DNA from: Halosimplex salinum
Lineage (GTDB): Archaea > Halobacteriota > Halobacteria > Halobacteriales > Haloarculaceae
DNA length: 64,000 nucleotides
Reading direction: 5' to 3'
NCBI RefSeq assembly: GCF_003730195.1
Contig: NZ_QWGG01000003.1
Span: forward strand, 248,001 to 312,000
Shown: one piece after another, positions 34,031 through 51,590 of the stretch
How the letters are laid out: every line of letters starts with the position of its first letter
Position numbering within the stretch: the stretch's first letter is position 1
Notes under the pieces: model-generated
Database searches by the model: none
The model's input: only the letters and a program-made list of their open reading frames with translations
Told to the model about the DNA's origin: nothing
Position numbers and translations under genes: made by a program

Positions 34031-34125
34031 ACATTCAACGTCACCAACAGATACAATAAGAATGGCCCTCATACACCGTTTACGTGCTGCTTTATCCCCG
34101 AACATGAGAGCCCACAGAGTGAACA

Positions 34126-34375
34126 ACTGCGGTGGCGCGCGCCGTCGAGCGTCTCGTCGCGAGACGGCGTCGCGCGAGGGATGACTGAGCGAGCGGAGCG
34201 AGCGAAGGAATCGGTTGGGGAGGCGTGAGGCTGGTTGCTGGGCGGTCCTTGGTGGACTGAAAGGGCGAGGTCCGTTCGCGGGGCGAAGCCCCATGGTCGC
34301 TGAGCGAGCGCTATCCGAACGGAGTGAGGATATCTCGCTCAGCGGCCGCGAACGGACCGAGGGCTTTCAACTCTC
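34126..34375. repeat. Dispersed structured repeat, copy A
   Basis: The gap 34031-34527 holds this element. It shares with copy B (51203-51440), in the same order, GGCGCGCGCCGTCGAG, GAGACGGCGTCG, TCGGTTGGGGAGGCGTG, a GCGGTCC-TGG-GGACTGAAAGGGCGAG block, CTATCCGA, GGATAT and CGAGGGCTTTC. Internal palindromes include GGGGCGAAGCCCC (34280-34292). The ends GAAAGGGCGAG and CGAGGGCTTTC are roughly inverted. No ORF. Confidence 0.8.
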
Positions 34376-34527
34376 ACCGTCTCCTGTGATCACTCCAACT
34401 CGACTTCCTTCCACACCAACTCGAACAGAAACAACCACTCAGTTCGCACGCGATACAGCGCATCGAAGCCCGACCCACACTGTCCCGGTCGAATAGACCC
34501 AGACGAGAACGAAATTAACAGCAGTTC
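34376..34527. other. A+T-richer tail of the repeat-bounded island
   Basis: About 150 bases with reduced GC (CACTCCAACTCGACTTCC, GAACAGAAACAACC). No gene or repeat recognised. It separates copy A from the DUF373 stop codon. Confidence 0.45.
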
Positions 34528-35676
34528 CTAGTCGCCGCCTTCGCGCTGGCGGGCGAGTTCGTGCTCGACGGCGGTGCCGCTGAAGTAGGCGGCGAAGCGG
34601 ACGCCGGCGAGGCTCACGAGGATGCCCGCGAGGATGAACAGCGCGAGTCGGGTGCCCGGCGGTTCGAGCGTCGCGCCCTCGAAGAAGAGGGGGCCGAGCT
34701 CGATGGAGCGGATCCGGAAGGGGTCGAACACGTCGGCGAGTTCGAGGAAGTACGCGGAGAACCCGCGGATCACGAGGCCGACGGCGACGGCGCCGAAGGG
34801 GAGGTTGAGGTAGGCGCTGCGGACGCCCTCGTGGCGGATGAGTTCGTCGAGCAGGCGGCCGGTGCTCGCCGCGAGCGCGGCACCGGTCAGCCAGGGGATG
34901 GCGTCGAAGGCGAATCGGCTGGCGAGGATGAGCGCGCTCTCCGACCCGGTGGCCGAGACGCCGATAGCGCCCGCGAAGACACCCACGAGCGAGAGGCCGG
35001 CGGCGACGACGTAGGTGACGAGCGCGACCTGCCCGGAGTACAGCGCCTCCTGGATCTGTCCGGGGAGGGCGGCGAGGTAGGCGTCGACGCCGAGGCCCTT
35101 GTAGAGGAGGAAGAGGCCGACGACGGCGACGATGGCGCCCGTTGCGACGCCGGGACTCGTCACCGACCACAGCACCGGGTAGGCGATGAGCGCGACGCCC
35201 AGCGGGACGAGGACGGTTTTGCGCAGTTCCTCGTCGGCGAGGAACTGCTTGAGGAGGTAGTAGGTGGACTCGATGTCGCGGGCCTGCCTGACGACGACGC
35301 GGTCGACGGCGTCGACGGTGAGGCGCGACTCGACGATGGGGACGAGCCGTTCGTCCTCGGCGCTGTCGACGACGACGACGGCCGAGTCGGGCTCGTAGTC
35401 CTCGATGAGCCCCTCGACCTGGCGAGCGATGGCCCTGTCGGCACTGATGGTGTCGTCGGTGCCGGCCAGCACCGCGACGACGGTCTCGTCACCGCTCGCG
35501 TCGAGGTCACGCGAGACTCGGAGGGCTTCCAGCAGACAGTTGACCTGGCTGTCCTCTGGGTCCTCGACGCCGACGTCGACGACGAGGGATTCGACGGCGT
35601 CCCGTCCCACGATCGGGGGTGCCGTTCCCTGCACGAGGTCGCCCGCGCGATCGATACAGACGACCAGCGTTGTCAC
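34528..35676 (-). CDS. DUF373-family membrane protein
   Basis: 382 residues. The N-terminal 150 residues are a soluble alpha/beta domain starting MTTLVVCIDRAGDLVQGTAP, which I recognise as the DUF373 opening, with DSQVNCLLEAL and VVVVDSAEDE. About six to seven TM helices follow (about 165-365). The family is conserved across archaea but has no assigned role. ATG 35676 is preceded by a TATA-like GATTTTTATCC on the minus strand (35698-35708). It seems to be a single gene. Confidence 0.88.
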   Translation of the reverse strand: MTTLVVCIDRAGDLVQGTAPPIVGRDAVESLVVDVGVEDPEDSQVNCLLEALRVSRDLDASGDETVVAVLAGTDDTISADRAIARQVEGLIEDYEPDSAVVVVDSAEDERLVPIVESRLTVDAVDRVVVRQARDIESTYYLLKQFLADEELRKTVLVPLGVALIAYPVLWSVTSPGVATGAIVAVVGLFLLYKGLGVDAYLAALPGQIQEALYSGQVALVTYVVAAGLSLVGVFAGAIGVSATGSESALILASRFAFDAIPWLTGAALAASTGRLLDELIRHEGVRSAYLNLPFGAVAVGLVIRGFSAYFLELADVFDPFRIRSIELGPLFFEGATLEPPGTRLALFILAGILVSLAGVRFAAYFSGTAVEHELARQREGGD

Positions 35677-35697
35677 GTATCGAGGGAGGCGACCACG

Positions 35698-35707
35698 GGA
35701 TAAAAAT
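35698..35707 (-). promoter_or_regulatory. TATA-like box for the DUF373 gene
   Basis: Plus GGATAAAAAT reads ATTTTTATCC on the minus strand, 22-31 nt before ATG 35676. Confidence 0.55.
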
Positions 35708-35769
35708 CCTCGCGACCGTTCGCGGTCGATCCGCCGACCGCAGTCCGGCGAGTCGGGGCGAGCGACTCG

Positions 35770-36858
35770 CTACGCCCCGTCGTGTTCGGACGCGACCGTG
35801 TCGACGACGCCGCGGAGGTAGCCGACCGTGAACCCGCGCGCGCGGTGGCGCCAGTCGGTGTCGCCCTCCATCTCCGGGACGTGGTCCGGGACGACCACGC
35901 CGTCGAAGCCGACCTCGTGGAGCGTGCGCACCGCTTCGACCGTGTCGAAGTTGCCCTCGTCGACGAACGTCTCGTGGAATTTCGGGACCGTCCCCGTCAC
36001 GTCGCGGAAGTGGACGAAGACGATCTGGTCGCGCTCGCCGAACGTCCGCAGGACCTCGGTCACGTCCTCGCCCATCTGCGAGAAACAGCCCAGACAGAGT
36101 TTGAGCCCGTGGTTGTCGCTCGGCACCAGATCCATCGCTTTCTCGAAGTTCTCCACGTTACGGAAGAGACGCGGGATCCCACCGAGCGATTCGAGACTCG
36201 GCGGGTCGACCGGGTGGAGCGCGAGGTCGACGCCCGCCTCCTCGGCGACGGGGAGGATCCGTTCGAGGAAGGCCTCGTAGTTGTCCCAGAACTCGGCCTC
36301 GGTGTACTCGCGGTCGAGGCCCGGCGCGAGTTCGTGGGGGTCGTCGATCTCGTCGAGGTCGAACGCGGTCCCGACGGCGCCGCCGCGGATCTCGACGGGC
36401 TCGGTCCGCATCGGGACCACGCCGCGAGGGTTCCACTGGTAGCCGAGGATGGGGATACCCGCCTCGCCGAGGTTCCGAACCAGTCGCTCGATCTGGTCGA
36501 GCGCTTCGTCCTTGCCCTCGCGGTCGAACATGATGTCGCCGTACAGCGAGTAGGGGAGCGACTGGATGCCGGCCAGCCGGAGGCCGTGGGACTCGACCTG
36601 CTCGCGGGCGGCGACGAGTTCGTCGACGCTCGGGATCGAGTCGGGGCCGACGGCCACCGTGTGGGAGGCCTCGCGGTCGTTGAACTCGTCGGGCTCCTCG
36701 TCGGTGTCGGCGTGGTCGACGAACACGTCTGTCGCGCCGAGCTGGCGGAGGTATCGGAGTCGTTCGTCCGAGAGATTGCGACTGCGGACGCCGACCCGCA
36801 CGGTCGGCTGAGAGCGGTCGGGGTCGGGTCGGTCGGTCGCCGCGCGCGTCTCGTTCAT
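35770..36858 (-). CDS. uxuA: Mannonate dehydratase
   Basis: 362 residues. It dehydrates D-mannonate to 2-keto-3-deoxygluconate in glucuronate or mannonate breakdown. TIM-barrel motifs with metal ligands are present: ALHPVDPP, LCLGCFSQMG, VHFRDVTG and PDHVPEMEGD. The length fits the family (about 340-400). No other uronate genes are next to it, so its pathway partners lie elsewhere, or the enzyme acts on related sugar acids. A TATA-like GGTATTTTTCC on the minus strand lies about 25 nt before ATG 36858. Confidence 0.9.
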   Translation of the reverse strand: MNETRAATDRPDPDRSQPTVRVGVRSRNLSDERLRYLRQLGATDVFVDHADTDEEPDEFNDREASHTVAVGPDSIPSVDELVAAREQVESHGLRLAGIQSLPYSLYGDIMFDREGKDEALDQIERLVRNLGEAGIPILGYQWNPRGVVPMRTEPVEIRGGAVGTAFDLDEIDDPHELAPGLDREYTEAEFWDNYEAFLERILPVAEEAGVDLALHPVDPPSLESLGGIPRLFRNVENFEKAMDLVPSDNHGLKLCLGCFSQMGEDVTEVLRTFGERDQIVFVHFRDVTGTVPKFHETFVDEGNFDTVEAVRTLHEVGFDGVVVPDHVPEMEGDTDWRHRARGFTVGYLRGVVDTVASEHDGA

Positions 36859-36878
36859 AGCCGGAGGTCGGTCCCACC

Positions 36879-36888
36879 GGAAAAATAC
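36879..36888 (-). promoter_or_regulatory. TATA-like box for uxuA
   Basis: Plus GAAAAATACC reads GGTATTTTTC on the minus strand, about 25 nt before the start at 36858. Confidence 0.55.
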
Positions 36889-36925
36889 CCACCGACCGCG
36901 GCGGCGCTCGCTTGGAATCGGTAGA

Positions 36926-37002
36926 GCGGTCGCGGGGCGGTCGCGGAGCCGTCACGGAGCTGTCGCGGAGCCGTCACGGAGCGGTCGCGGGGCGGTCGCG
37001 GA
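36926..37002. repeat. 11-bp tandem repeat, seven copies
   Basis: Consensus GC(G/C/T)GTC(G/A)CGG(A/G) repeats seven times without gaps: 36926, 36937, 36948, 36959, 36970, 36981 and 36992. It lies between the uxuA promoter and the SppA stop. The copies alternate between two variants. Confidence 0.93.
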
Positions 37003-37022
37003 GCCCCCACAGGAGCGTCGGA

Positions 37023-38057
37023 CTATCGACGGAAGCGCAGTCCCGCCGCGTCGGCGTCGCCGTCGAACGCGCTGGCGAGGCCGGAACCGAACGCGTAGGT
37101 CGCCCGTTCGGCGCCGATCTGGACCCGGTCGCGCAGGGACCGGACCGGCTCGAACTCCCGGACGACGACCGACTCGTCGAGGCGTTCGGCGAGTGCGTCT
37201 TCCACGTCCTCCCGGGTGCCGAGTTCGTCGACCAGGTCGCGCTCGAGCGCATCGGTGCCGAGAAAGACCCGGGCTTCGGTGTCCTCGACGGCGTCGCGGT
37301 CGAGGTCGCGGCCCTCGGCGACGGTGTCGACGAACTGGTCGTAGTAGTCGTCGACGAGCCCCTGGAGGTACTCGCGCTCCCGGGGGTCGAGTTCCTTCAG
37401 CGGCGCGCCGGCATCCTTGTAGTCGCCGGCGGTGAACCCCTCGTAGGAGAGCCCGAGGCGCTCGGCGAGGTCGTGTGCGTTGACACGCGAGCCGATAACG
37501 CCGATCGATCCGACGAGTGTGCCCTCGCGCGCCCAGAACTCGTCGCAGCCGACGGCGATGTCGTAGCCGCCGCTCGCGCACACGTCGGTCGCGTACCCGA
37601 CCGTCGGTCCGTCGAACGACTCGGCGGCCAGCCGGATGTCCGCGCTCGGGACGATCTCGCCGCCAGGGGTGTTGAGTTTGACCAGGAGCGCGTCGACGTT
37701 CGGGTCGGCGTCGGCCTGTTCGATCTGTTCGACCACGTCGTCGGCGCTCAGGCCGATGGGTGACCCCGGGACGCCGCTCTTGCTCTCGCGGGCGATCGGT
37801 CCCTCGACCGCCACCTCGGCGACGTTGTAGGGGGTGACGAACGAGCCGCCGAGACGGCTCCCGAGCCACAGCGCCACCAGCGTGACGACCGTCACCATCA
37901 GCACTCCGAGGAGTTCCGAGAGCGACTCGGGGTAGCTGACGAACGCGTACCAGGCGCCGACGAGTCCGACGAGCCCGACCAGTGCCGTGACGAGGAGCGG
38001 GACGACCGTCCCCTCGACCGTCCCGACCGCTTCGCTGTCGTGTGATGTTCTGCTCAC
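37023..38057 (-). CDS. sppA: Signal peptide peptidase SppA (S49 protease)
   Basis: 344 residues from GTG 38057. Two N-terminal TM helices (about 18-40 and 47-70) are followed by one S49 protease domain. The nucleophile is Ser162 in DVCASGGYD and the general base Lys214 in TAGDYKDAG. NTPGGE and GSIGVIGS are family markers. It degrades membrane-released signal peptides or other membrane proteins outside the cell. GTG 38075, six codons upstream, is an alternative start. Confidence 0.9.
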   Translation of the reverse strand: MSRTSHDSEAVGTVEGTVVPLLVTALVGLVGLVGAWYAFVSYPESLSELLGVLMVTVVTLVALWLGSRLGGSFVTPYNVAEVAVEGPIARESKSGVPGSPIGLSADDVVEQIEQADADPNVDALLVKLNTPGGEIVPSADIRLAAESFDGPTVGYATDVCASGGYDIAVGCDEFWAREGTLVGSIGVIGSRVNAHDLAERLGLSYEGFTAGDYKDAGAPLKELDPREREYLQGLVDDYYDQFVDTVAEGRDLDRDAVEDTEARVFLGTDALERDLVDELGTREDVEDALAERLDESVVVREFEPVRSLRDRVQIGAERATYAFGSGLASAFDGDADAAGLRFRR

Positions 38058-38176
38058 GTGAGTGCCCTCCGTCACTCACTCGGTCGGTCACGGTGAAAAG
38101 CTGTCGGCGGTCTCCGGGAGAGCGCGCGGGCAGTGTCGGTCGGCGGTCCGCGGCGTCGGCCGTCCGCACGGCCCGC

Positions 38177-38965
38177 TCACAGCGAGACCGAATCGAAGTC
38201 ACTCCATATCTCGAAGGCGGTTCCCTCCCCGATACTGTCGGTGTGGCGTCCGAGCCCGTGTTCGGAGACGTTCGTCGCGACGATCCGGTCGGCCTCGAAC
38301 CGCCGGGCGAACTCCCGCAGTTCGGTGGCGTCGCGGTCGCCGCGGCGCTCCTCGTCGAGGACGGACCCGTCGAAGAAGAGCAGGTCCGCGTCGACGCAGT
38401 AGTCGGGAATCTCCCCGGGACCGTCGACGTCGGGCGCGTAGACGACGGTCCGCTCCCCGGCCGAGACGGCGTACCCCTGTGTCGGGAAGGCGGTGGTGCC
38501 GTGGTCGACCGCGAAGGCGCGGATCCGCACGTCGTCCGCCCGGACGGCTTCGCCGGGGTCGACCGGTTCGTAGTCGAGGTAGTCGAGGACGTACGGGAAG
38601 GTGTCCTCGGTGAACGTGCGGACCGGACGACTCCCGTAGACGGTGAACTCCGGGTCGGAAGCGGCGCTGTCGAACTCCTCCCGGCCGTGACCGGCCCGCT
38701 TCATCGCCGCCTGACCGAGTTCGTTGATCCCCCAGTAGTTGTCGAAGTGCGCGTGTGTCGCGAAGAACCCGTCCACGTCGTACACGTCCATCTCGTCGAG
38801 TTGCCGGGCGATGTCCGGCCCGATGTCGAGGACGACCGTCCGGTCGTCGACCTCGACGAGGACGGCCGGCCGGCGGCGCCGCTCGCTCTCGACGCAGTAC
38901 TCGCAGCCACAGAGGGGCGCGGGCACGCCGACCGCGTCACCGGACCCCATGAGGGTGACCCGCAT
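38177..38965 (-). CDS. PhnP-like metallo-beta-lactamase hydrolase
   Basis: 262 residues. It opens MRVTLMGSGDAVGVPAPLCG with CGCEYC (zinc-binding insert as in PhnP) and continues with VVLDIGPD. The metal motif reads THAHFDNYWG: the canonical H-x-H-x-D-H has Asn in place of the last His. Later ligand positions are DHGT and VYAPDVDG. PhnP acts on cyclic ribose phosphates in phosphonate use, but no phn genes are nearby. The likely activity is a phosphodiesterase; the Asn may change metal binding. Confidence 0.83.
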   Translation of the reverse strand: MRVTLMGSGDAVGVPAPLCGCEYCVESERRRRPAVLVEVDDRTVVLDIGPDIARQLDEMDVYDVDGFFATHAHFDNYWGINELGQAAMKRAGHGREEFDSAASDPEFTVYGSRPVRTFTEDTFPYVLDYLDYEPVDPGEAVRADDVRIRAFAVDHGTTAFPTQGYAVSAGERTVVYAPDVDGPGEIPDYCVDADLLFFDGSVLDEERRGDRDATELREFARRFEADRIVATNVSEHGLGRHTDSIGEGTAFEIWSDFDSVSL

Positions 38966-39080
38966 ACACGCGGTAGGGCCGAGGCGCCGAAACCCGTTTC
39001 GTCTATCACGATCCGTACCTGTCCGATCCCGTCACTGTGTGTCGATCGCGGCGCCGGAGTCCGGGAGGGCAGGGGAGGTC

Positions 39081-41174
39081 TCAGCTGTTGACGGCTTCGA
39101 GGCGGTCGCTGACGACGAGGCGCCCGCGGGCGGTGAGGCCCGTCCCGGCGAGGTCGGTGGTGGTAACCATCCCCTTCTCGGCGAGCGACGCGAGGTTCTC
39201 CCGCAGTTCCTCGTCGTCGCGTTTGAACGCGGCCGAGAGGTCGACGCCCTCGCCGATGGTGTAGAGGGCGACGAGCACCTCCTTCTCGCGGTCGGGGATC
39301 GAGAGCGCCCGCGCCGCTTCGAGACGCTCGCGGTAGTCGCGCCGGACGAACCGCTCGAACAGCGCCAGCGTCCGCGTCGACTCGCTGCCGACGACGGCCG
39401 TGACCGCCTCGCCGTCGTCGAACCGCTGGACCGCGAGCGCGGGCCGGCGGTCGCCGTCCACGGTCTGGCGAGTCCGCTCGACGTGGAGCACGTCGTCCAG
39501 GTCGATCGACAGCAGGGTCGTGTCAGAGCCGACCGGCGTGAACCGCACCCGGCCGCGGTCGACGTAGCACATCGCCGGCGTCGCCGATTCGTCGGTGACG
39601 CGCCCGCCGACCCGGGCGGGGTCCGTGACCGTCGTCCGGGAGACGTGGAGGGCGTTGCGGAACAGCGCGATCCAGAAGTCCCACTTGCGCCCCTCGTCGA
39701 GCGCGACGATGGCCGCCTCCTGACTCCCCGCCCGGCGGACGACGATCCCGAGCGCCGAGTCGAAGGGGACGTCCGTCGCCGTCTCCGCGTCGGGGACCAC
39801 GTCGACCACGCGGTCGAGCGCCAGCAGGTCGAACTCGACGGTCTCGTCGTCGAGCGACCCGTCGGTCGCCGGCGAGACCAGGAGGACCTCGTTCTGCCCG
39901 AGGACGACCTGCCCCTCGACGGCCTGCCCGTCCGCGACGGCCGGCGAGACGAAGCGGGTTCCGACCCGGGCGACCATCGGCTGGGTGATCGCCTCCTCGA
40001 CCGTCTGCGGCTGGGTCGCCAGCGGCTCGTCCGCCTCCAGCCGGCCGTCGCCCGGCCCGGCGGTGGTGTGCGCGTTCGGGTCGGGTTCGGCGGGCGGCCC
40101 CTCACCGGGGTCGACGGGCGCCCCCCACTCGCGGTCCATCCCCGGCGCGACGGCCGAATCGCTGTCGACTCCGGCGCTCTCGGGGCGGACCGACGCGTCC
40201 TTCCTGGTGACCCAGTCCCGGAGCGCGGCCATGTCGTCCACGTCCGCGCCGGCGGAGCGCGAGAACTGGCCGCCCGCCGAATCGGCCTGCTCGGCCATCG
40301 TGTGCTCGTCGGGGTCGTAGTCGAACCCGTCGGGGACGCGGGCGGACCGCGGGTTTCGGACGCGCCGCCCGGCCTCGTTCTGCGCCCGCTCGAAGCGCGA
40401 GTCGGGGCCGTAGTCGGCGGCCGTGAACGGCTCCCGGGAGAACGGCGCCGGGTCACACACCACCGGGAACCGGCGGTCCGGGTTCGCCGGCGGCACGTCG
40501 GGGCCGAGCGCGTCCCGGTCGAAGGCGGCGTACGTGGCCGCGCTCGTCCGCTGGCCGGCGTAGCGGACGAACGCCTCCGCGGTCTCGCGGTCGGGCAGCC
40601 CCAGCGCGTGCCGGATCGAGGTCGCGTCGAACCCGACGTCGGCGAGGAAGCGCCCGCCGGTCGCGCGGAGGACGTGCGGCGTCAGCCCGTCCGGGTCGAT
40701 CCCTTCGGCGGCCGCCGCCGTCTCGGTCACGACCTCGCGGACGGTGGCGGCGTCGCCGTCGAAGTGGTCGAGGTAGTCGAAGAACGTGGCCAGCACCGCG
40801 GTGATCCGCTCGGACCAGCCGAAGGCGACCGTCCGGGCGCCCGCGTCCGTGCCCGGGGACCACTGCTCGGTGCGAACGATCTCGCCGAGGGGACGCTCGT
40901 CGCCCGCCGCCTGGCGCGCTCGCGCGTTCGCCCAGCACGAGCGGCAGGCGCACGGGTCCAGCGCCGGGACGCGGATCTCACCGCGCCCCCAGTCGATCCA
41001 CCCCTCGTGGCAGTGGACGATCTCGTCGGGCCGCAGGCCGAGGCGTCCGGCCAGCAGGGTGACGTAACACCGGCTCAGCCGCCGCTGGACGCTGTCGGCC
41101 GCGAGCGCACCCCGGTACAGCGAGTAGAACGCGCCCGGACCGAGCGTCCGATCGAGCGGCGGCCAGTCGGACAT
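39081..41174 (-). CDS. Tyrosine-recombinase-like domain fused to a CheF-like taxis domain
   Basis: 697 residues, one uninterrupted frame. Residues about 25-220 look like the haloarchaeal XerC/D-type integrase core: LAGRLGLRPDEIVH (Arg48), EIRVPALDPCACRSC (Cys75, 77, 80) and HVLRATGG (His167, Arg170). The usual Y-V-R-x-S-G reads AFVRYAG, so the nucleophile position is Phe202. Residues 221-400 are a disordered-looking acidic linker. Residues 401-697 resemble CheF, the adaptor linking CheY to the archaellum: FRNALHVSR-TTVTDPARVGGRV, then KEVLVALYTIGEGVDLS and GRLVVSDRLEAVNS. Loss of cleavage activity and a DNA- or taxis-adaptor role are inference. Confidence 0.78.
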   Translation of the reverse strand: MSDWPPLDRTLGPGAFYSLYRGALAADSVQRRLSRCYVTLLAGRLGLRPDEIVHCHEGWIDWGRGEIRVPALDPCACRSCWANARARQAAGDERPLGEIVRTEQWSPGTDAGARTVAFGWSERITAVLATFFDYLDHFDGDAATVREVVTETAAAAEGIDPDGLTPHVLRATGGRFLADVGFDATSIRHALGLPDRETAEAFVRYAGQRTSAATYAAFDRDALGPDVPPANPDRRFPVVCDPAPFSREPFTAADYGPDSRFERAQNEAGRRVRNPRSARVPDGFDYDPDEHTMAEQADSAGGQFSRSAGADVDDMAALRDWVTRKDASVRPESAGVDSDSAVAPGMDREWGAPVDPGEGPPAEPDPNAHTTAGPGDGRLEADEPLATQPQTVEEAITQPMVARVGTRFVSPAVADGQAVEGQVVLGQNEVLLVSPATDGSLDDETVEFDLLALDRVVDVVPDAETATDVPFDSALGIVVRRAGSQEAAIVALDEGRKWDFWIALFRNALHVSRTTVTDPARVGGRVTDESATPAMCYVDRGRVRFTPVGSDTTLLSIDLDDVLHVERTRQTVDGDRRPALAVQRFDDGEAVTAVVGSESTRTLALFERFVRRDYRERLEAARALSIPDREKEVLVALYTIGEGVDLSAAFKRDDEELRENLASLAEKGMVTTTDLAGTGLTARGRLVVSDRLEAVNS

Positions 41175-41280
41175 ACGCTCCCCCTGCCCCGTCCTGACAC
41201 ATAGCTGTTACTGGCGAAATCTCAGGACTGAGAACAGGTCGAACGACGCACACACCGGTGGACGGCCGTCGCGGACGCGT

Positions 41281-42690: not shown

Positions 42691-42714
42691 TTGCCGACTG
42701 GTACGCGACCGGTC

Positions 42715-42722
42715 CGTTAAAG
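42715..42722 (-). promoter_or_regulatory. TATA-like box for ffh
   Basis: Plus CGTTAAAG region reads CTTTAACG on the minus strand, 25-32 nt before ATG 42690. Confidence 0.5.
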
Positions 42723-42811
42723 ACTTTGTACTCTCGGGGACGCGGCCGAACTCACGACGGGATGGCGCCCCGACAGGGCGGTCGACACCCCAGCACGTTA
42801 ATACATCAGCG

Positions 42812-42822
42812 ATAATTGATTA
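42812..42822 (+). promoter_or_regulatory. TATA-like box for the ABC-2 exporter operon
   Basis: GATAATTGATT lies 20-30 nt before ATG 42842, in an AT-rich patch that also includes GTTAATACAT. Confidence 0.5.
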
Positions 42823-42841
42823 CGTGCAGAGGTGTCTGGTA

Positions 42842-43783: not shown

Positions 43784-45507
43784 ATGCGCTGACGGTCGCC
43801 CGCAAAGAGGTGACGGACGCGAGGCGTTCCGCGCTCGTGTGGGCGCTGGTCGCCCTGATCGGGCTCGTCGCTGTTCCGACGATCGTGCGGTTCCCGGACA
43901 GCGTCGTCACGAGCGCGACGCCGGACCGCATCGCGCTCGTGTTGCTGACGAGTTTCGAGCGACCGGTCGCCCTCGCGGCCGTGCTCGTCGGCGGTCTGGC
44001 TATCGCCGGCGAACGCGAGACCGGCAGCCTCCGCGTCCTCTCTGGGTTTCCCTTGTCACGTCGGGATCTCCTCGTCGGGAAACTCCTCGGTCGTGGATCC
44101 GTCCTGATCGCCGTCGTACTGGCCGGACAGGTGCTGATCGTCGCTGCGGTCGTCTACCGGCTCGACGGCGTCTCGCTTCGTACGTTCGGGCACGGTGCCG
44201 GATTGACGCTCCTGTTCGCGCTCGCGTACTTCGGCATCGCGGTCGGCGCCTCGGTGGTCGCGAACACCCGTCTCCGCGCGCTGGTCCTCGGACTGGGCGC
44301 GTACATCTTCTTCAGCAGTTACTGGGAGCGGGTCGTCGTCGGCCCCGTCTTCGAGGTCCTCCGGGGGCGGCCGCCGACCGACGGGGAACTGCAGTTCGTC
44401 ATCGTGAATCACGTGGGTACGATAGACTACCTGCAACTGCTCAACCCGAACAACGCGTACACGGGGGCGAACTACTTCGACCCGGCCGTCGACTGGTTCG
44501 GCGTCACGGTGTTGCTCGGGTGGTTCGTCGTCCCGGTGGTACTGGGGTACGTGCGCTTCCGAAGTCAGGACGTCGAACCCGAGCGGCGCCGTCCGTTAGC
44601 GCCGCTCCGGCGGCGGCTCGAAGCGGTCTCGATACCCTGGTCAGCCCTCCCGACGCCCGCCCTCCCCCTCTCGCTTCCCGACCACGCGGCGGTCGCGTAC
44701 GGGCGAGCGGACCTGACGACGCTCCGTCGGTCCCGTCTGATCCTCGGACTGGTCGCGATACTGGTCGGGCAGTTCGTCGCCGCGGCACTGAGCGTGCCCG
44801 TCCCGGGCGCGGACACGGGCGGGCTCACACCCCCTCCGGGAGTCGGCACCAACTTCGGGCCGCTGTTCTCGGAACTCGGGACGCCGTTGCTGATACAGTT
44901 CGTGGCGGTCCTGCTCGGGGCGCTGGCGGTCGTCGACGGGGTCGAAACCGGGCGACTCAGGGTCCTCGTCGGGTATCCGGTGCGTCGCCGTGACGTGCTC
45001 GTCGGGACGGTCGTCGGGCGGGCGCTCCTCTACGTCTGCTCTCTGGCGACCGGGCTCCTCGCGGCCGCGGTTGTCCTCTGGGTTCGCCCGACGACGGTCG
45101 ACCCCGTATCGCTCGCGCTGGGCGGCAGCAGCGTCGCGGCGCTCGGGCTGGCCTTCTTCGGTATCGCGGTCGGCGCCTCCGCGTTCGCCCGCCGGCGGAT
45201 CACCGCACTGGGCGCCTCGTTCGGCGCGGTCGTCCTGTTCTCCGCGGTGTGGCGGACCTTCGTCGTCGGCCTGCCGTTCCTGTTCGTCCGGGGGGAGTTC
45301 CCGGGGCCGACCGAGCTCGCCTACACCGCCGGATCGACGCCGCAGTGGTACCACTACGTACTGTGGGTCGACCCGACCGAGGCCTACCGCATGCTGGGGA
45401 ACGTCACTGGGTCGCTCCGCTTCCAGTTGGCCGGCGTGCTGGCGTTCTGGGCGGTCGTTCCCGTCGTCGTCGGTTACTGGCGGTTCCGGTCTCGGGACAT
45501 CGCCTGA
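43780..45507 (+). CDS. ABC-2 type permease, two permease units in one chain
   Basis: 575 residues from GTG 43780. Each half has a similar order: a TM helix, a glycine-rich ETGSLRVL or ETGRLRVL motif, SRRDLLVGKLLGR or VRRRDVLVGTVVGR, then FGIAVGAS and a F(S)S-W-VVVG segment. Residues about 1-270 and 305-575 are thus a tandem repeat with about six TM helices each. One chain would supply both permease halves of the ABC-2 complex. The substrate is unknown. Confidence 0.9.
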   Translation: MNALTVARKEVTDARRSALVWALVALIGLVAVPTIVRFPDSVVTSATPDRIALVLLTSFERPVALAAVLVGGLAIAGERETGSLRVLSGFPLSRRDLLVGKLLGRGSVLIAVVLAGQVLIVAAVVYRLDGVSLRTFGHGAGLTLLFALAYFGIAVGASVVANTRLRALVLGLGAYIFFSSYWERVVVGPVFEVLRGRPPTDGELQFVIVNHVGTIDYLQLLNPNNAYTGANYFDPAVDWFGVTVLLGWFVVPVVLGYVRFRSQDVEPERRRPLAPLRRRLEAVSIPWSALPTPALPLSLPDHAAVAYGRADLTTLRRSRLILGLVAILVGQFVAAALSVPVPGADTGGLTPPPGVGTNFGPLFSELGTPLLIQFVAVLLGALAVVDGVETGRLRVLVGYPVRRRDVLVGTVVGRALLYVCSLATGLLAAAVVLWVRPTTVDPVSLALGGSSVAALGLAFFGIAVGASAFARRRITALGASFGAVVLFSAVWRTFVVGLPFLFVRGEFPGPTELAYTAGSTPQWYHYVLWVDPTEAYRMLGNVTGSLRFQLAGVLAFWAVVPVVVGYWRFRSRDIA

Positions 45508-45611
45508 CGGGGCGCCCTGTGGCGCGTCGTCACCGGACGTGCGGCGCCCGGATGGACTAAGGGGTCGCCGCGACGACTATCCGACATGAACTGGGCGAGT
45601 CCACGGCGCCG

Positions 45612-46838
45612 GTGGCACCGATGACGCCTGGCGGCCGCGGCGGCGACGCCGACGACCGCGTCGAGTACGAGCCGGTCAGCGTCAAGGAGCTGCTGGGCGA
45701 GATGAAGGACATCGCCGAGCTCCTGATCGATCTCTCCTATTCCTCCGTCCTCTTCGACAGTCGGGCGCTCGCCGAGGAGGTGCTCGAACTGGAGTCGGAG
45801 ATGGACGTGCTCCAGCTGAAAGCGCGGATGAGCCTCGTGATGGCCGGCCGCTCTCCGGAGGAGGCAGAACAGCTGGCGCCGATCTTCGGCATCGTCGGCG
45901 CCGCCGAGAAGATCAGCGACGCCGCGGGCGACATCGCGAAGGTCGTCCTCGAGGACATCGGCCTGCCGACGGCGCTCCGGTCGTCGCTCCCCGACCCCGT
46001 CGAGGCGCTCGCGCGGGCTGAACTCGCCGCCGACTCCGCCTACGCCGACCGGACGCTCGCGGACATCAACCTCGAGACAGAGACCGGCGTCCGGGTGCTC
46101 GCCATCCGCCGGAGCGACGAGTGGGTGCTCAACCCCGACCGGGAGACGGTGCTCCGGGCGGACGACGTGTTGCTCTGTCGCGGCCCCGACGACGGGATCG
46201 CCGGCGTCTACGAGACCGCGACCGGCGAGCCCTTCGAGCGCCCCGCGGTGTCCGAGTCGGACATCGCGGACCTCGACCGGGCGGTCGAGACGGTGGTCCT
46301 GATGAAGAACGTGAGCGAGCTGGCGGTCGACCTGGCCTACGGGAGCGTCCTCTTCGACGACCCGGAACTCGCGCGGGAGGTGAGCGAACTCGAGGTCGAG
46401 GTCGACGCGCTCAAGTCCCGCTTCGAGGCGTGGGCGCTCCGGGCGGCCGCCGAAGTGGAGGACCCGGTGACGATCCGCGGCCTGCTCCACATCGCCGCGA
46501 GCACGGAGGTGATCAGCGACGCCGCGCTGGAGATAAGCGAGGGCGTCCTCCGCGGGCTGGGGAGCCACCCCGTCGTGCAGGCCGCCGTCGAGGCCTCCGA
46601 CGAGGTGCTCGTCAGCGTCCCCGTCGCGGCGGGGAGCGACCTCGCGGACACGACGATCCGCGAGCAGGAACTGCGCACCACGACGGGGATGCTCGTCATC
46701 GCGATCCGCCGCGAGTCCGCGGGCGAGACCGACTGGCTGCTCACCCCGGACCCGGGGACGACGCTCCGCGCCGGTGACACCCTCATCGCGAAGGGGACGC
46801 GAACCGGCGCCGAGCGACTCAGGAATCTGGCCGGGTGA
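45612..46838 (+). CDS. Double PhoU-RCK_C (TrkA-C) regulatory protein
   Basis: 408 residues. Two similar halves, each a PhoU-like helical bundle (KELLGEMKDIAELLIDLSYS and VVLMKNVSELAVDLAYGSV) followed by an RCK_C/TrkA-C domain (TLADINLETETGVRVLAIRR and TIREQELRTTTGMLVIAIRR). RCK_C domains bind small ligands such as nucleotides and gate cation channels. The next two genes encode MgtE-like membrane halves, with a GTGA overlap into the first, so it is probably the cytosolic gate for a divalent-cation channel. GTG 45612 is used; ATG 45621 is the alternative. Confidence 0.88.
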   Translation: MAPMTPGGRGGDADDRVEYEPVSVKELLGEMKDIAELLIDLSYSSVLFDSRALAEEVLELESEMDVLQLKARMSLVMAGRSPEEAEQLAPIFGIVGAAEKISDAAGDIAKVVLEDIGLPTALRSSLPDPVEALARAELAADSAYADRTLADINLETETGVRVLAIRRSDEWVLNPDRETVLRADDVLLCRGPDDGIAGVYETATGEPFERPAVSESDIADLDRAVETVVLMKNVSELAVDLAYGSVLFDDPELAREVSELEVEVDALKSRFEAWALRAAAEVEDPVTIRGLLHIAASTEVISDAALEISEGVLRGLGSHPVVQAAVEASDEVLVSVPVAAGSDLADTTIREQELRTTTGMLVIAIRRESAGETDWLLTPDPGTTLRAGDTLIAKGTRTGAERLRNLAG

Positions 46839-47401
46839 CGATGGCGAGCGACTGGTCGGTCTCGGGGATCACGCGGCGACTCTTCCCGATCCTCGTGGCG
46901 CTGACGCTGCTCGAACTGGTCGGCGGGCTCACCCTCGGATCCTTCGAGGCGACGCTCCGGCGCTACCCATCCCTGCTCGTCCTCGTGCCGGTGACCATCG
47001 GGACCGCGGGGAACCTCGGGAGCGTCCTCTCGGCGCGACTGTCGACCGCGTTCCACCTCGGGATCCTCTCCTTCGACGTGACCGACGACGAGCTCCTCGG
47101 GAACACCATCACGACCGTCCTGCTGGCGGTGACCGTCTTCCCGGTCGTCGGCGCCGGCGCGTGGGCCGTCGCGCGGGTGACCGGCGGGGCGCGACTCCCG
47201 GTCGAGACCGTGGTCGCGGTGGCATCGATTAGCGGGCTCGTCCTCGCCGTCCTCGCCGTGGCCGTCACGGTCACCGCGGCTTACACCGCCTACCGGTTCG
47301 AGGCCGACCCCGACGACGTGGTCATCCCCGTCGTGACCAACGTCTGTGACGTGCTCGGCGTGATCGTCCTGTTCGGCGTCGTCCGGGTGATCGTCACGTG
47401 A
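46835..47401 (+). CDS. MgtE-like membrane half, first
   Basis: 188 residues from GTG 46835, overlapping the previous stop by 4 bp. It has about five TM helices, with the PVTIGTAGNLGSVLSARLST loop that corresponds to the MgtE channel-lining motif. There is no cytosolic CBS or N domain. A related half follows 43 bp later; together they equal one pseudo-dimeric pair. Predicted role: Mg2+ or similar cation transport gated by the PhoU-RCK protein. Confidence 0.85.
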   Translation: MTMASDWSVSGITRRLFPILVALTLLELVGGLTLGSFEATLRRYPSLLVLVPVTIGTAGNLGSVLSARLSTAFHLGILSFDVTDDELLGNTITTVLLAVTVFPVVGAGAWAVARVTGGARLPVETVVAVASISGLVLAVLAVAVTVTAAYTAYRFEADPDDVVIPVVTNVCDVLGVIVLFGVVRVIVT

Positions 47402-47444
47402 CCCGGACGGGGCGACAGCGCGCGCCTGGAGGTGAGTCCCCGCC

Positions 47445-48014
47445 GTGTCGGTGAGAGAGACGATCGTCGAGGGGTACCGCGGCGCCCTGCCGACGCTGCT
47501 GGTGAGCGCGCTCGGCGGGCTGCTCGCCGGGGGTATCCTCGGCGGGATGGAGGCCGAACTCGAGGCGGTCCCGGGCCTGCTGGTCGTCGTGCCGGCGTTC
47601 CTCGCGATCCGCGGGAGCGTCTACGGGTCGCTCGGGTCGCGGCTGTCGAGCGCGCTCCACCAGGGGCTCGTCGAACCGCATTTCACCCCTGACGACCGAC
47701 TCGTGAGCGCGATCGCCGCCGCCCTGCTCAACGGTCTCGGGGCCAGTCTGGTCGCCGCGACGTTCACCTTCGCCATCCTCACCGCGCTCGGCCGGCGGGT
47801 GGCGCCGCTGTGGACGCTCGCCCTGATCGCGCTCGTGGGCGGCGCGCTCGCCGGCGTGATACTGGTCGCAGTCATCGTCGTCGTCGTCTTCGGCGGCTAC
47901 CGCCGCGGGATGAACCCCGACAACCTCGTCGGCCCGACGGTGACCACGGCCGGCGACATCTTCGGGATGGCCGCCCTCTTCGTCGCGACTCGCCTCGCGC
48001 TCGCCGTGACCTGA
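47445..48014 (+). CDS. MgtE-like membrane half, second
   Basis: 189 residues from GTG 47445. It has five hydrophobic helices and the motif VPAFLAIRGSVYGSLGSRLSSALHQG, aligned with the first half's VPVTIGTAGNLGSVLSARLSTAFHLG (shown in parts). A conserved Asp (GPTVTTAGDIFGM) sits in the last helices as in MgtE. It probably pairs with the first half as one channel. Confidence 0.85.
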   Translation: MSVRETIVEGYRGALPTLLVSALGGLLAGGILGGMEAELEAVPGLLVVVPAFLAIRGSVYGSLGSRLSSALHQGLVEPHFTPDDRLVSAIAAALLNGLGASLVAATFTFAILTALGRRVAPLWTLALIALVGGALAGVILVAVIVVVVFGGYRRGMNPDNLVGPTVTTAGDIFGMAALFVATRLALAVT

Positions 48015-48097
48015 CCGCCCGGATGCGATAGATCGCCGGGCGCTCGCCCCTGCGTCGACACGAAACCTCGAAGTACGGGGGGTCCAAAGGCTCTGGT

Positions 48098-48319
48098 ATG
48101 GCAGACCTCGCAAGTTCGGCGATGGAGCTGGTAAACAGCATCATCGAGATGCCCGGCCACTTCCAGGAAGTCGCGACGCACGACCCGATCAGCGCCGTCC
48201 TGATCGCCTTCGGCGCGCTGTTCGTCCTCGCCCCGAGCGCGGCGCTCGGCTACCTCTCGCTGGGCGCGTTCCTCTCGCTGTTCACCGTCGATAGCTCGCC
48301 GCCGCCGGAAGCGCAGTAA
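48098..48319 (+). CDS. Small membrane protein (73 aa)
   Basis: ATG 48098 gives MADLASSAMELVNSIIEMPG, an amphipathic N-terminal helix. Then one long hydrophobic helix (about 33-63) and a short Pro-rich tail follow. It lies on the same strand as the cation-module genes, 83 bp downstream, so co-expression is possible. Haloarchaeal genomes carry many such proteins of unknown role. Confidence 0.75.
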   Translation: MADLASSAMELVNSIIEMPGHFQEVATHDPISAVLIAFGALFVLAPSAALGYLSLGAFLSLFTVDSSPPPEAQ

Positions 48320-48331
48320 GCGGTCGCCGCG

Positions 48332-49300
48332 CTACGCAGTGTGATTCTCGCCGAGTAGCTCGATAGCTCGCTCCACGTCCGGCCCGAGCGGCGACGCCGC
48401 GACGAAGCTGTCCGCGTACTCCAGCACCGCATCGATCTCCGCCTCGACCTGTTCGGGCGTCCCCGCGATACAGAACGCGTCGAGCATCGACTCCGTGACT
48501 CGCTCGGCCGCTTCGCGGAACTCGCCCGAGGAGACGGCGTCGCTCACGGCCGCTGCCGCCTCGGCGTCGATGTCGTGGCGCGAGAGCACCGGCGGGGGCG
48601 CGCCGCCGGCGACGAACGCCACCGGGAAGCGTGCGGTCTCGCGGGCCGCGGCCGCGTCCTCGGCGACGCTGACCGACGCGTAGGCGGCGAAGTCGAACTC
48701 GCCGCGGTCGTCGGGGCGCTCGTCGAGTCCCTCCGCGACGCGCTCGCTCGCCCACTCGTAGTCGCGCGGGTGCGCGCCGTTGTAGAGGACGCCGTCTGCG
48801 TGTTTGGACGCCATCCGGGTCATGTGCGGGCCCTGCGCGCCGACGTACACCGGGATCGAACCGACGTCGTAGTTGAGGCCGGCGTCGTCCGCGGTGAAGG
48901 TGCCGTCGTGGTCGACGCGCTCGCCGGCCCAGAGGCGCTGGGCGATCTTGAACGTCTCCAGCACGCGCCGGAGCGGGGTGTCGGGGTCGACGCCGAGGTT
49001 GGCGAGCGTCGAGGCGTCGCCGGGACCGACCCCGAAGACGCCGCGACCGCCGCTGTACTCGTCGAGCGTCGCCATCCGCGAGGCGAGGGTGACGGGGTGG
49101 GTCTCGTAGGGGTTGGCGACGCCCGGTCCGACGAGGATGTCGTCGGTCTCGGCCGCGATGGCCGTCAGCGCGGCGAACTGGTCGCGGTTGTTGTAGTGGT
49201 GGCTAACGAAGGCGGCGTCGAACCCGGCGGCCTCGGCGGTCTCGCCGAACCCGGCGAGCGTCGAGACGGGGTGTTCCGGGGTGAGTTCGACGGCGCGCAT
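48332..49300 (-). CDS. mer: F420-dependent 5,10-methylene-tetrahydromethanopterin reductase-like protein
   Basis: 322 residues. It is a luciferase-like TIM barrel with VGPGVANPYETHPVTLASRM, FGVGPGD near 90, and SIPVYVGAQGPHMTRMASKH, all typical of Mer. In methanogens Mer reduces methylene-H4MPT with F420H2; in haloarchaea it is thought to supply methyl or methylene groups on a folate-like carrier. The start ATG overlaps the cofE stop by one base (TGATG), tying it to F420 synthesis. Another F420-dependent oxidoreductase is possible. Confidence 0.87.
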   Translation of the reverse strand: MRAVELTPEHPVSTLAGFGETAEAAGFDAAFVSHHYNNRDQFAALTAIAAETDDILVGPGVANPYETHPVTLASRMATLDEYSGGRGVFGVGPGDASTLANLGVDPDTPLRRVLETFKIAQRLWAGERVDHDGTFTADDAGLNYDVGSIPVYVGAQGPHMTRMASKHADGVLYNGAHPRDYEWASERVAEGLDERPDDRGEFDFAAYASVSVAEDAAAARETARFPVAFVAGGAPPPVLSRHDIDAEAAAAVSDAVSSGEFREAAERVTESMLDAFCIAGTPEQVEAEIDAVLEYADSFVAASPLGPDVERAIELLGENHTA

Positions 49301-50148
49301 CAGTCGGTCGCCTCCGCGTCGGCGGCGTCCGTCGGAGTGTCGGTGTCGGCGGTGTCGTCGCCGTCGTCGGCGTGTCCGTCGACCTGTCGTAACCGGTCCT
49401 TGTCGTAGTCCCACTCCCGGAGCGCGTCGCGGACGTAGTCGGCGTTCTCGGAGCGGAAGAGCCCCTCGTGTGGCTCGTGGTCGCCGAACTCGAAGCCGCG
49501 CACCACGACGACGGGGAGGCCGTCGTCGCCCTCACCGGTGAGGAGATTCGCGGCGGCAGCGAGTTCGTCGGCGACGGCTTCGACGGTGACGCCGAGTTCC
49601 CGGCCGTCGCGGTCGGACTCCCCCCGCCAGTCGCGCGCGGCGGGCATCCCCGCGAGGCCGAGCGCGACGCCGCGCTGGCCCTGGCGGAACGGGCGCCCGG
49701 ACGTGTCGGTCACGATCACGGGCGCGTCGAGCGCCTCGTGGATCCGCTCGGCGCTGGCCGAGGGGTCCTCGGGCAGCAAGAGCAAGTCGGCGTCGGGGAC
49801 GTTCGAGCGGTCGATACCCGCGTTGACGGAGATGTGGCCGAACCGGGTCACCGCGAGCATGAGCGGTTCCTCGGTGAGCAGTTCCTGACTCTCGTCGATC
49901 ACGGCCTGCGCGAAGCGCGGGTCTTTTTCCTCGCCGGCGAGCGCGCCGATGCGGTCGGCGATGCGTTCGGCCTGCGGGCCGGGGTCGAACTCGGAGAGGT
50001 CGGCCTGTCGGCCCTCGGCCTTCGAGACGATAGAGTGCGAGACGCAGACGACGTCGTCCTCGTGCAGGTCGACCCGCTCGGCGATCAGTTCGCCCACGTC
50101 GTCGCCGGGGCGAACTTCGGGGAGGCCCTCGACCGCGAACAGTTCCAT
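49300..50148 (-). CDS. cofE: Coenzyme F420-0:L-glutamate ligase
   Basis: 282 residues. It adds gamma-linked glutamates to F420-0 using GTP. Family motifs: PEVRPGDDVGELIAERV, VVCVSHSIVSKAEGR, VIVTDTSGRPFRQGQRGVAL (in sequence), SDRDGRELGVTVEAVADELA, and RGFEF. The last about 30 residues are an Asp/Thr/Ala-rich tail. It is first in a two-gene operon with mer. ATG 50148 is the start. Confidence 0.95.
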   Translation of the reverse strand: MELFAVEGLPEVRPGDDVGELIAERVDLHEDDVVCVSHSIVSKAEGRQADLSEFDPGPQAERIADRIGALAGEEKDPRFAQAVIDESQELLTEEPLMLAVTRFGHISVNAGIDRSNVPDADLLLLPEDPSASAERIHEALDAPVIVTDTSGRPFRQGQRGVALGLAGMPAARDWRGESDRDGRELGVTVEAVADELAAAANLLTGEGDDGLPVVVVRGFEFGDHEPHEGLFRSENADYVRDALREWDYDKDRLRQVDGHADDGDDTADTDTPTDAADAEATD

Positions 50149-50292
50149 ACCCGCCCTGTGTGTCCCCCGGGCAAAAACACCGCGCTACGAGCAGGGTTCG
50201 CCCGGACCGGTGACGAAGCAGTCGCCGGCGACAGGGCCACCCCGGCCACCGATCCGAAACGATAGTAGGCCCCCCGCCGCTCAGACGTGAGC

Positions 50293-51177
50293 ATGAGCGA
50301 CGACCCCGCTCCCGTCCCCACCGATAGCGAAGCCGCTCCCACCTCCACCGATGGCGACGCCGCCGCCATCTCCACCGATAGCGACGCCGCAGCCCTCGCC
50401 GACGTGGCCGTGCGAGCGGTCGAGTCCGCCGGCGACTACCTCTCGGAGAGCTTCCGCAACGGCGGCACGCCCGCCGACTACACCGCCAAGGACGTGAAAG
50501 CCGAAGCGGACCGCGAGGCGGAACGGCGCGTCCTCGACGCGATCACCGACGCCTACCCCGACCACCGGATCTCCGCCGAGGAGTCCGGCGACCACGCGGG
50601 CGACGGCGCGTACCGCTGGGTGGTCGATGCCCTCGACGGCACGAACAACTTCACCGCCGGGATCCCCACGTTCGGCGTCGCGGCGACCGTCTGCGAACGC
50701 CCCGAACCCGGCGCGCCGGAGGACGACCCCGTCGCCACCGCCGTCCACGTGCCGGTCCTCGACGACACCTACGTCGCCGAGCGCGGCAACGGTGTCCGGT
50801 ACAACGGGACCACCGTCGAAGTGACAGACGGCACGGCGCTCCCGCCGGAGAAGGCGACCGTCGGGATGATCATCGGCCCCGAGGTCGTCTCGGGGGGCGT
50901 CGAGCGCGAGGAGTGGGACGCGATCACCGACGCCGTCGAGACGGTCCCCAAGCGCGCCATCCAGACGTGGGCGCCCGTCGTCTACTGGGGCCTGCTCGCC
51001 CGCGGACAACTCGACGGCTTCGTCTGCTACTACCCCGCCGAACGCGAACAGGTGGCCGGGAAGCTACTGGCCCGCGAGGCCGGGGCCGTCGAGCGCTCGG
51101 ACGGCCCGCTCACCGTCTTCGGCGCCGACGAAGAGATCTGTGACGCGCTCTGGACGGCCGCGAGCGGCGCGCTGTAG
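50293..51177 (+). CDS. Inositol-phosphatase/FBPase-family protein
   Basis: 294 residues. Metal ligands of the lithium-sensitive phosphatase fold are visible: AEESG (Glu pair), VVDALDGTNNF in place of the common DPxDGTxNF (Pro changed to Ala), and a C-terminal region lacking the usual WDxAAG Asp site. Instead it reads GFVCYYPAEREQVAGKLLAR. So catalysis may be altered. The N-terminus carries a short acidic repeat, STDGDAAAISTDSDAAA. Usual substrates are inositol phosphate, FBP, NADP or PAP. ATG 50293; GTG 50287 also possible. Confidence 0.85.
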   Translation: MSDDPAPVPTDSEAAPTSTDGDAAAISTDSDAAALADVAVRAVESAGDYLSESFRNGGTPADYTAKDVKAEADREAERRVLDAITDAYPDHRISAEESGDHAGDGAYRWVVDALDGTNNFTAGIPTFGVAATVCERPEPGAPEDDPVATAVHVPVLDDTYVAERGNGVRYNGTTVEVTDGTALPPEKATVGMIIGPEVVSGGVEREEWDAITDAVETVPKRAIQTWAPVVYWGLLARGQLDGFVCYYPAEREQVAGKLLAREAGAVERSDGPLTVFGADEEICDALWTAASGAL

Positions 51178-51202
51178 GAAGGGGGTTCTGCGGTCCGCGG
51201 GT

Positions 51203-51440
51203 CGCTGTGGCGCGCGCCGTCGAGGGTTTCATCCCGAGACGGCGTCGTGCGAGGGACGAGGAGCGCAACGGAGTGAGCACCGCAGTCGGTTGGGGAGGCG
51301 TGTGGCACGGTGCTGTGCGGTCCCTGGCGGACTGAAAGGGCGAGACACGGTCGCGTTCAGTTCAGTCGCCTGAGCGGGCACTATCCGACCGAAGGGAGGA
51401 TATCCTGCTCAGCGACCGCGAGCGGGTCGAGGGCTTTCGT
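51203..51440. repeat. Dispersed structured repeat, copy B
   Basis: The 418-base gap 51178-51595 holds this element and the 57-bp array. It shares ordered blocks with copy A at 34126-34375: GGCGCGCGCCGTCGAG, GAGACGGCGTCG, TCGGTTGGGGAGGCGTG, GACTGAAAGGGCGAG, CTATCCGA, GGATAT and CGAGGGCTTTC. The middle differs in length. No ORF. Confidence 0.8.
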
Positions 51441-51590
51441 CGCTTGCTCTCGAACGCGGTAAGAACAACTCCTGACGAGCGGGGCGAGGGCTTTCGTCGC
51501 TTGCTGTCGTCTGCGCCGAAGATCACTGCTAGCGAGCGGGTCGAGGGCGTTCACCGCTCGTCGTCGAAGACGGTCGAAACAGTCCAAACA
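51420..51590. repeat. 57-bp tandem repeat, three copies
   Basis: Units start with GAGCGGG at 51420, 51477 and 51534, each followed by CGAGGGC-TTC-CGCT. Copies 1 and 2 match best at the first 30 bases. The first unit overlaps the end of copy B. Confidence 0.85.

What the first reader, a model, noticed from the sequence alone, without database searches (positions are those of the whole stretch)
34126..51440. A dispersed, structured ~250-bp repeat present twice
Copies A (34126-34375) and B (51203-51440) share at least seven ordered blocks over their length and contain no gene. Both end near A/B-specific palindromes with CTATCCGA and GGATAT, and both start with a GGCGCGCGCC palindrome. They look like a non-autonomous mobile element or a structured regulatory element.
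Basis: seen in the sequence. Interest (0 to 1): 0.6.

Follow-up and report, generated by a model that had tools for sequence, protein, structure and literature searches.

The report
Haloarchaeal dispersed folded intergenic repeat
The two look-alike stretches belong to a large family of folded, non-coding repeats scattered between genes in many salt-loving archaea, whose shape is kept by evolution while the copies come, go and seem to overwrite one another.

Summary
Copies A and B are 79% identical over about 240 bp and belong to a dispersed family: 70 covariance-model matches in this genome, the weakest partial, 20 to 94 per genome in the genus, and matches in 116 of 194 sampled class genomes, 40 of 65 genera. 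The genus is inferred to be Halosimplex. None of the 70 overlaps a predicted gene. One strand folds, with strong covariation and, in many copies, a helix alternating tandem G·A with two Watson-Crick pairs. Rfam has no match. Copies turn over: B is absent from the same junction in congeners; nine shared sites hold elements no more alike than random copies, which suggests ectopic conversion; one copy lies at a rearrangement junction. No recurrent transposase neighbour and no IS605 parent was found in this genome. Best reading: a non-autonomous, strand-specifically folded mobile repeat homogenised by conversion. How it moves, and whether it is transcribed, are not shown.

The parts
34106..34129 (+). 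Copy A: leader of the leader-plus-tail subfamily (...CCCACAGAGTGAACAACTG), resembling the 3' end of a second dispersed repeat
34129..34370 (+). Copy A: element core (model R1 match 34133-34370)
34136..34176 (+). Copy A: helix P1 (34136-34141 with 34171-34176) closing hairpin P2
34180..34212 (+). Copy A: helix P3, GAU...AUC with tandem G.A steps alternating with two Watson-Crick pairs (A fits the rule by hand)
   Evidence: family evidence; letters
34211..34223 (+). Copy A: highly conserved block TCGGTTGGGGAGG
34257..34369 (+). Copy A: 3' domain, long stem 34258-34281 with 34346-34369 enclosing an inner stem and TATCC/GGATA (34312-34316 with 34328-34332)
34371..34450 (+). Copy A: A/C-rich tail of the leader-plus-tail subfamily
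51203..51440 (+). Copy B: element core (model R1 match 51208-51440), about 30 nt after the stop of the upstream gene
51211..51251 (+). Copy B: helix P1 (51211-51216 with 51246-51251) closing hairpin P2
51419..51589 (+). Copy B: three 57-bp tandem units (51419-51475, 51476-51532, 51533-51589); the first overlaps the end of the core
   Evidence: 43 of 46 unit spacings measured among 64 own copies are exactly 57

Best explanation
A and B are copies of a non-coding, non-autonomous dispersed element of the class Halobacteria, about 240 bp plus a variable 3' tail. SHOWN: it is multicopy and intergenic; one strand folds, and that fold is kept by compensatory change; B's site is unoccupied in congeners; at shared sites position and orientation are kept while the element's sequence is no closer to its orthologue than to other copies. 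INFERRED: the folded strand, as a transcript or as single-stranded DNA, is recognised by a trans-acting factor that copies or inserts the element between genes. Once in place, ectopic gene conversion among the dozens of copies overwrites them and so maintains the fold across the family; crossing-over between copies rearranges the chromosome; copies also decay, leaving 5' stubs.
For: 70 model matches in this genome, 0 of 70 overlapping a predicted gene by more than 30 nt. Covariation on 27 copies: 18 of 61 pairs changed on both sides, 75 such cells against 17.7 in shuffles, 0 of 500 reaching it. Class-wide 5' domain, 57 sequences: 168 cells against 44.7, 0 of 500. G.U pairs outnumber A.C pairs 110 to 8 there, so it is this strand that folds. 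Site B: G002, G003, G004, G006 and G007 have 25-37 nt between the aligned flanks and no element, and R1 finds no element at the site in any of the seven congeneric loci, best E 0.098 elsewhere. Shared sites: of 20 high-scoring copies fetched from each relative, 5 in G005, 3 in G004 and 1 in G002 have both flanks matching a site occupied here in the same orientation; none has them in the opposite orientation. At those 9 sites the orthologous element ranks 47, 48, 1, 29, 46, 32, 36, 19, 7 of 65 own copies by identity, mean 29.4 against 33 at random (P 0.29), while the flanks are 79-85% identical. L334 joins the upstream flank of one own site to the downstream flank of another. In G005 a 5' stub of about 20 nt remains at the site of an own copy (by sight). 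Intermolecular gene conversion between genome copies, not between dispersed repeats, is reported for polyploid Haloferax volcanii (PMC8223754, title and start of abstract in a search listing).
Against: No mobilising protein, no shared ends with the fetched IS605-type loci and no target duplication were found. The empty site at B could be a loss in the relatives rather than a gain here; one case looks like a loss. Two of the nine orthologous elements rank 1 and 7, as vertical descent would predict. Conservation over a class is unusual for a purely selfish non-autonomous repeat. Transcription was not tested. The identity ranks ignore gaps and use one aligner and scoring; a score-based ranking was likewise scattered (ranks 11 to 57). 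Relatives were sampled with 20 copies each.
Confidence: 0.55

Rival explanations
1. A domesticated multicopy RNA: the transcript binds a conserved haloarchaeal protein (or acts as a scaffold, 3'-end or stability element), and copies are kept because the host uses them.
For: The 99-nt 5' domain with its conserved GCGAGGGAYGA and TCGGYTGGGGAGG blocks is found in 40 of 65 genera. 24 of 70 copies begin 11-60 nt after the stop of a co-oriented gene. A halite metatranscriptome reports 22 intergenic RNAs found in several Halobacteria without known function (PMC7002113, passages); whether this family is among them is unknown.
Against: No orientation bias in tandem gene pairs (16 with, 18 against), no recurrent gene partner in the listed families, no conserved promoter-like sequence seen upstream of leaderless cores (110 nt by eye; 16 nt counted in 35 copies), places that differ among congeners, and 78 of 194 class genomes without a match under strict filters.
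Confidence: 0.22
2. A single-stranded-DNA element of the IS200/IS605 kind (like the haloarchaeal PATEs): a Y1 transposase recognises the folded DNA strand at excision and insertion.
For: No terminal inverted repeats found, palindromes near the ends, non-coding, strand-specific folding; PATEs of Haloquadratum are described as lacking inverted repeats and having near-terminal palindromes (PMC3119063, passages). The genome holds 2 Y1 and 9 TnpB-type (PF07282) matches.
Against: The 11 fetched loci, some overlapping, carry no element by model R1 (best E 0.89). The best BLAST match is 49 bp at 86%, E 6.6e-9, to a hairpin-bearing stretch of one copy (L021), not to element ends. The covarying fold is much larger than a pair of subterminal hairpins.
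Confidence: 0.15
3. A DNA-level architectural or recombination repeat (BIME/REP-like), selected as DNA, with the RNA-like fold secondary.
For: 28 of 70 copies lie between convergent genes, against 112 of 508 adjacent gene pairs in the fetched regions and window; inverted pairs of the element in other genera; a rearrangement junction at a copy.
Against: The excess of G.U over A.C pairs (110 to 8) and the matched G.A pattern show selection on one folded strand. Insertion between convergent genes may only reflect tolerance.
Confidence: 0.08

Closest known systems
PATEs (palindrome-associated transposable elements) of Haloquadratum walsbyi (PMC3119063, passages read)
   Same: Haloarchaeal, non-coding, numerous, no terminal inverted repeats, palindromes near the ends, many heterogeneous copies, strain-specific insertions.
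   Different: PATE ends resemble IS605-type transposons of the same genome; here no such match was found. This family has a covarying multi-helix core found across a class and 57-bp tail arrays.
REP/BIME and REPIN repeats of bacteria (PMC3116915, search listing only; details recalled)
   Same: Extragenic, palindromic, dozens of copies, inverted pairs in some genomes.
   Different: Several times longer (recalled comparison), complex fold, no Y1 transposase found next to a copy in this genome.
ERIC elements of enterobacteria (recalled, no call)
   Same: Intergenic, folded, unknown mobiliser.
   Different: Not compared in sequence here; this family has lineage-specific 3' domains and tandem tails and lives in archaea.
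STAR elements of Staphylococcus (PMC3532100, search listing only)
   Same: Intergenic repeats whose places vary between species.
   Different: Described in the listing as interspersed direct repeats; no multi-helix core is mentioned there.

Membership tests
PATE / IS200-IS605 derivative | No terminal inverted repeats; palindromes near the ends; non-coding | tested here: met
   (inverted-repeat scan done for copies A and B only)
PATE / IS200-IS605 derivative | Ends related to those of an IS605-type transposon | tested here: not met
   11 fetched loci of the own genome, some overlapping; other genomes not tested
PATE / IS200-IS605 derivative | Insertion without target duplication | tested here: inconclusive
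   empty-site spacers too diverged to align; flank unconserved beyond GCGGT in 35 leaderless copies
MITE | Terminal inverted repeats matching a DNA transposon | tested here: not met
   in A the inverted arms are internal, in B none of 10 nt or more was found; no transposase family among the 25 commonest of 233 in 133 neighbours
MITE | Target site duplication | tested here: inconclusive
   element ends variable
REP/BIME with RAYT | Y1 transposase gene flanked by the repeats | tested here: not met
   2 Y1 loci of the own genome, no element within the fetched flanks
Known Rfam RNA family | Match to a covariance model | tested here: not met
   window at gathering threshold: none; four loci up to E 5: three matches, all outside the element
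CRISPR array (for the 57-bp units) | Near-identical repeats with unrelated spacers | tested here: not met
   units are alike over the whole 57 bp (74% and 67% to the first)
Cis-regulatory RNA | Fixed orientation relative to a recurrent gene class | tested here: not met
   16 vs 18 in tandem pairs; neighbours mixed
Independent ncRNA gene | Own promoter and transcript | not testable with these tools
   no conserved upstream promoter seen; no RNA-seq at hand

The most novel reading that the evidence does not exclude
An archaeal SINE-like parasite: an RNA with a class-wide conserved 5' domain, including a helix built of alternating tandem G·A steps and two Watson-Crick pairs, joined to lineage-specific 3' domains and repeat tails, which is copied through its folded transcript by a factor encoded elsewhere and refreshed by ectopic gene conversion.
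Probability: 0.17. Interest if true: 0.85.

Novelty: new variant of a known kind. Interest (0 to 1): 0.6.

Why it matters
If the reading holds, a large structured element found in 40 of 65 sampled haloarchaeal genera has no Rfam match and was not met in nine literature searches aimed at it (open-access papers only). It would offer a natural test of concerted evolution in haloarchaea, a source of chromosome rearrangement, and a new fold with repeated tandem G·A pairs whose partner protein could be pulled down.

Tried and rejected
Rejected: low-complexity or GC artefact. Known Rfam RNA. IS605/PATE parent in this genome. Association with a particular gene or transposase (proteins trimmed to 340 aa, only the 25 commonest of 233 families listed). 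Virus-borne element: copy A has no match in 50,697 phage records at E 1e-5; 8 plasmid records of Halorussus, Haloarcula and Halobaculum carry partial matches. CRISPR-like array. Solo 5' stubs as a class in this genome: 10 matches without the next core motif within about 180 nt, two of which are the starts of known copies with long inserts (L136, L166) and the rest no more than chance-like (5 in shuffles); stub formation therefore rests on single cases seen. A kink-turn or C/D-box reading of GGAUGA/CUGA (motifs recalled) was dropped because the letters vary. An empty site for copy A could not be tested: only its right flank is conserved in congeners. A regex segmentation matched 3 of 129 copies and was not used.

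A looser count gave more shared sites, reaching also own copies outside the top 64 (L317, L333); those are not among the nine. Of the 70 own matches the last few are short or partial and three (C23:188619, 188687, 188869) may be pieces of one element.
Full report
What was checked. Copies A and B align at 79% identity over about 240 bp. The described blocks and palindromes are there, and neither copy lies in a predicted gene. A BLAST of A against the whole genome gave dozens of further matches, with 40 of 238 candidates scored. A covariance model (R1) built from 27 cores, 22 of this genome and 5 of congeners, gave 70 matches at E 0.01, 64 of them at E 1e-10; the weakest are short or partial. 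In the window itself only A and B match.

Where it lives. Two congeneric genomes have contigs of the same length as named ones: G004 (5,199,031 bases, as Halosimplex pelagicum R2) and G005 (4,824,346 bases, as H. aquaticum XZYJT29), so I infer that the window is from a Halosimplex. The eight genomes of the genus hold 20 to 94 matches at E 1e-10; the lowest is a 71% complete genome. A class-wide model of the 99-nt 5' domain (R2) matches 116 of 194 class genomes and 40 of 65 genera, with strict filters and at most 21 candidates scored per genome, so counts per genome are lower bounds. In a phylum sample 23 of 246 genomes match and all 23 are of the same order; how many of the negatives lie outside it is not shown, since 203 are unlisted. 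Named carriers include Natrinema, Natronococcus, Haladaptatus, Halorussus, Halococcus, Haloarcula, Halogranum, Halolamina and Halorubellus.

Anatomy. In leaderless copies the conserved sequence begins at GCGGTGGCGCGCGC; the 10 bases before it are not conserved in the 35 counted, and nothing further up struck the eye. Helix P1 closes hairpin P2, then come GCGAGGGAYGA, helix P3, TCGGYTGGGGAGG, and a 3' domain that differs between lineages: in Halosimplex CTGAAAGGGC...GAGGGCTTTC with nested stems, in several other genera GGGACTGAAAGGGGC...GGGGCTTTC, and in the Natrialbaceae genera seen a different, shorter end. Two 3' ends occur in this genome. 10 of 64 copies have a leader plus an A/C-rich tail, A among them; 36 of 64 have a second 57-bp unit without leader or tail, the arrangement seen in B; 1 of 11 leader copies has a second unit; 12 of 64 have none of the three. 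43 of 46 unit spacings are exactly 57.

The fold is real. On A2, 18 of 61 pairs have changes on both sides, 75 cells against 17.7 in shuffles (0 of 500), and sliding the partner by one to three columns lowers pairing from 98.4% to at most 46.1%. On the class-wide A6, 168 cells against 44.7 (0 of 500), although the number of pairs with a double change is not exceptional (14, reached by 53 of 500). Helices 4 and 5 of A2 vary on one side only and are less secure. G·U pairs outnumber A·C pairs 110 to 8 in A6 and 53 to 8 in A2 without helices 4 and 5, so selection sees this strand. P3 hides a pattern that standard pairing rules miss: tandem G·A, two Watson-Crick pairs, repeated. 49 of 79 class-wide and 40 of 88 Halosimplex hairpins pair completely when G·A is allowed, 37 and 35 hairpins follow the strict alternating pattern; on the same-length subsets 46 of 74 pair completely against a mean of 16.0 (maximum 22 of 200) when 3' halves are swapped among sequences, and 38 of 85 against 12.5 (maximum 18). 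30 of 79 and 48 of 88 do not pair completely; a part of these, B among them by sight, has another arrangement (..CGCA...CGCA). A fits by hand (letters). Sequences of one genome are related, which such controls do not remove.

Dynamics. None of 70 matches overlaps a predicted gene by more than 30 nt; gene calls are from my own codon-usage script, not curated. Contexts in the element's frame: 28 convergent, 18 (-,-), 16 (+,+), 8 divergent. At B's junction five congeners have the two convergent genes with 25 to 37 nt between the aligned flanks and no element; G005 has about 1.2 kb of other sequence there, and in G001 the upstream match ends early. R1 finds no element at that site in any of the seven loci. 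Of 20 fetched copies per relative, 5 (G005), 3 (G004) and 1 (G002) have both flanks matching a site occupied here in the same orientation, none in the opposite one, so sharing is most simply by descent. Yet the element at such a site is no closer to its orthologue than to other copies (mean rank 29.4 of 65, P 0.29), with one rank 1 and one rank 7 against this trend; a score-based ranking on an overlapping set is likewise scattered. I read this as ectopic gene conversion. PMC8223754 and PMC11276520 (search listing) report efficient gene conversion between genome copies in the polyploid Haloferax volcanii; conversion between dispersed repeats is my extension. G005 copy L334 has the upstream flank of own site C21:518909 and the downstream flank of own site C21:260551, which fits recombination between two copies; seven further fetched elements share one flank only with an own site. 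At the site of own copy C21:195237, G005 keeps only a 5' stub, so losses occur too.

How it moves. No answer. 133 neighbouring proteins show no recurrent mobile-element family among the 25 commonest of 233. The genome has 2 Y1 and 9 TnpB-type matches and none of the fetched loci bears the element's ends. Random orientation in tandem pairs argues against a cis-regulator. The conserved folded strand argues for recognition as RNA or single-stranded DNA. The step from fold to copying is inference.

Known or new. PATEs of Haloquadratum (PMC3119063, passages) are the nearest described kind that I met; the link to IS605 ends was tested in this genome and not met. There is no Rfam match, and nine literature searches aimed at such an element listed nothing that by title or abstract describes this family; subscription papers and supplements were not searched. 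A halite metatranscriptome reports 22 unexplained RNAs found in several Halobacteria (PMC7002113, passages), which could include it.

Noticed in passing
window 33038-33268: A second dispersed repeat with hairpins (...AAAAACAGGGGTGAAAGAGGC...), with further copies in this genome and in at least six of seven congeneric ones (list cut). It also stands directly upstream of some leader-type copies of the main element (motif before 6 of 11 leader copies and 2 of 53 others).
   Followed up: partly
L180, L231, L234, L245 (tail to tail); L252, L238, L259 (head to head): In Natrinema and some other haloarchaea the element occurs as close inverted pairs, somewhat like REPIN doublets.
   Followed up: partly
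L334 4001-4331 and own sites C21:518909, C21:260551: A chromosomal rearrangement junction between two Halosimplex genomes falls at a copy of the element.
   Followed up: yes
L021, L014, L126, L166: Stems of some copies are lengthened by small perfect hairpins (such as CGAAAATCTTCGATTTTCG) that recur in several copies, as if palindromes were inserted into stem tips; one such stretch also matches an IS605-type locus, L378.
   Followed up: no
L336 and own C21:30856: A decayed 5' end of what looks like an older copy lies just upstream of the present copy in both genomes.
   Followed up: no
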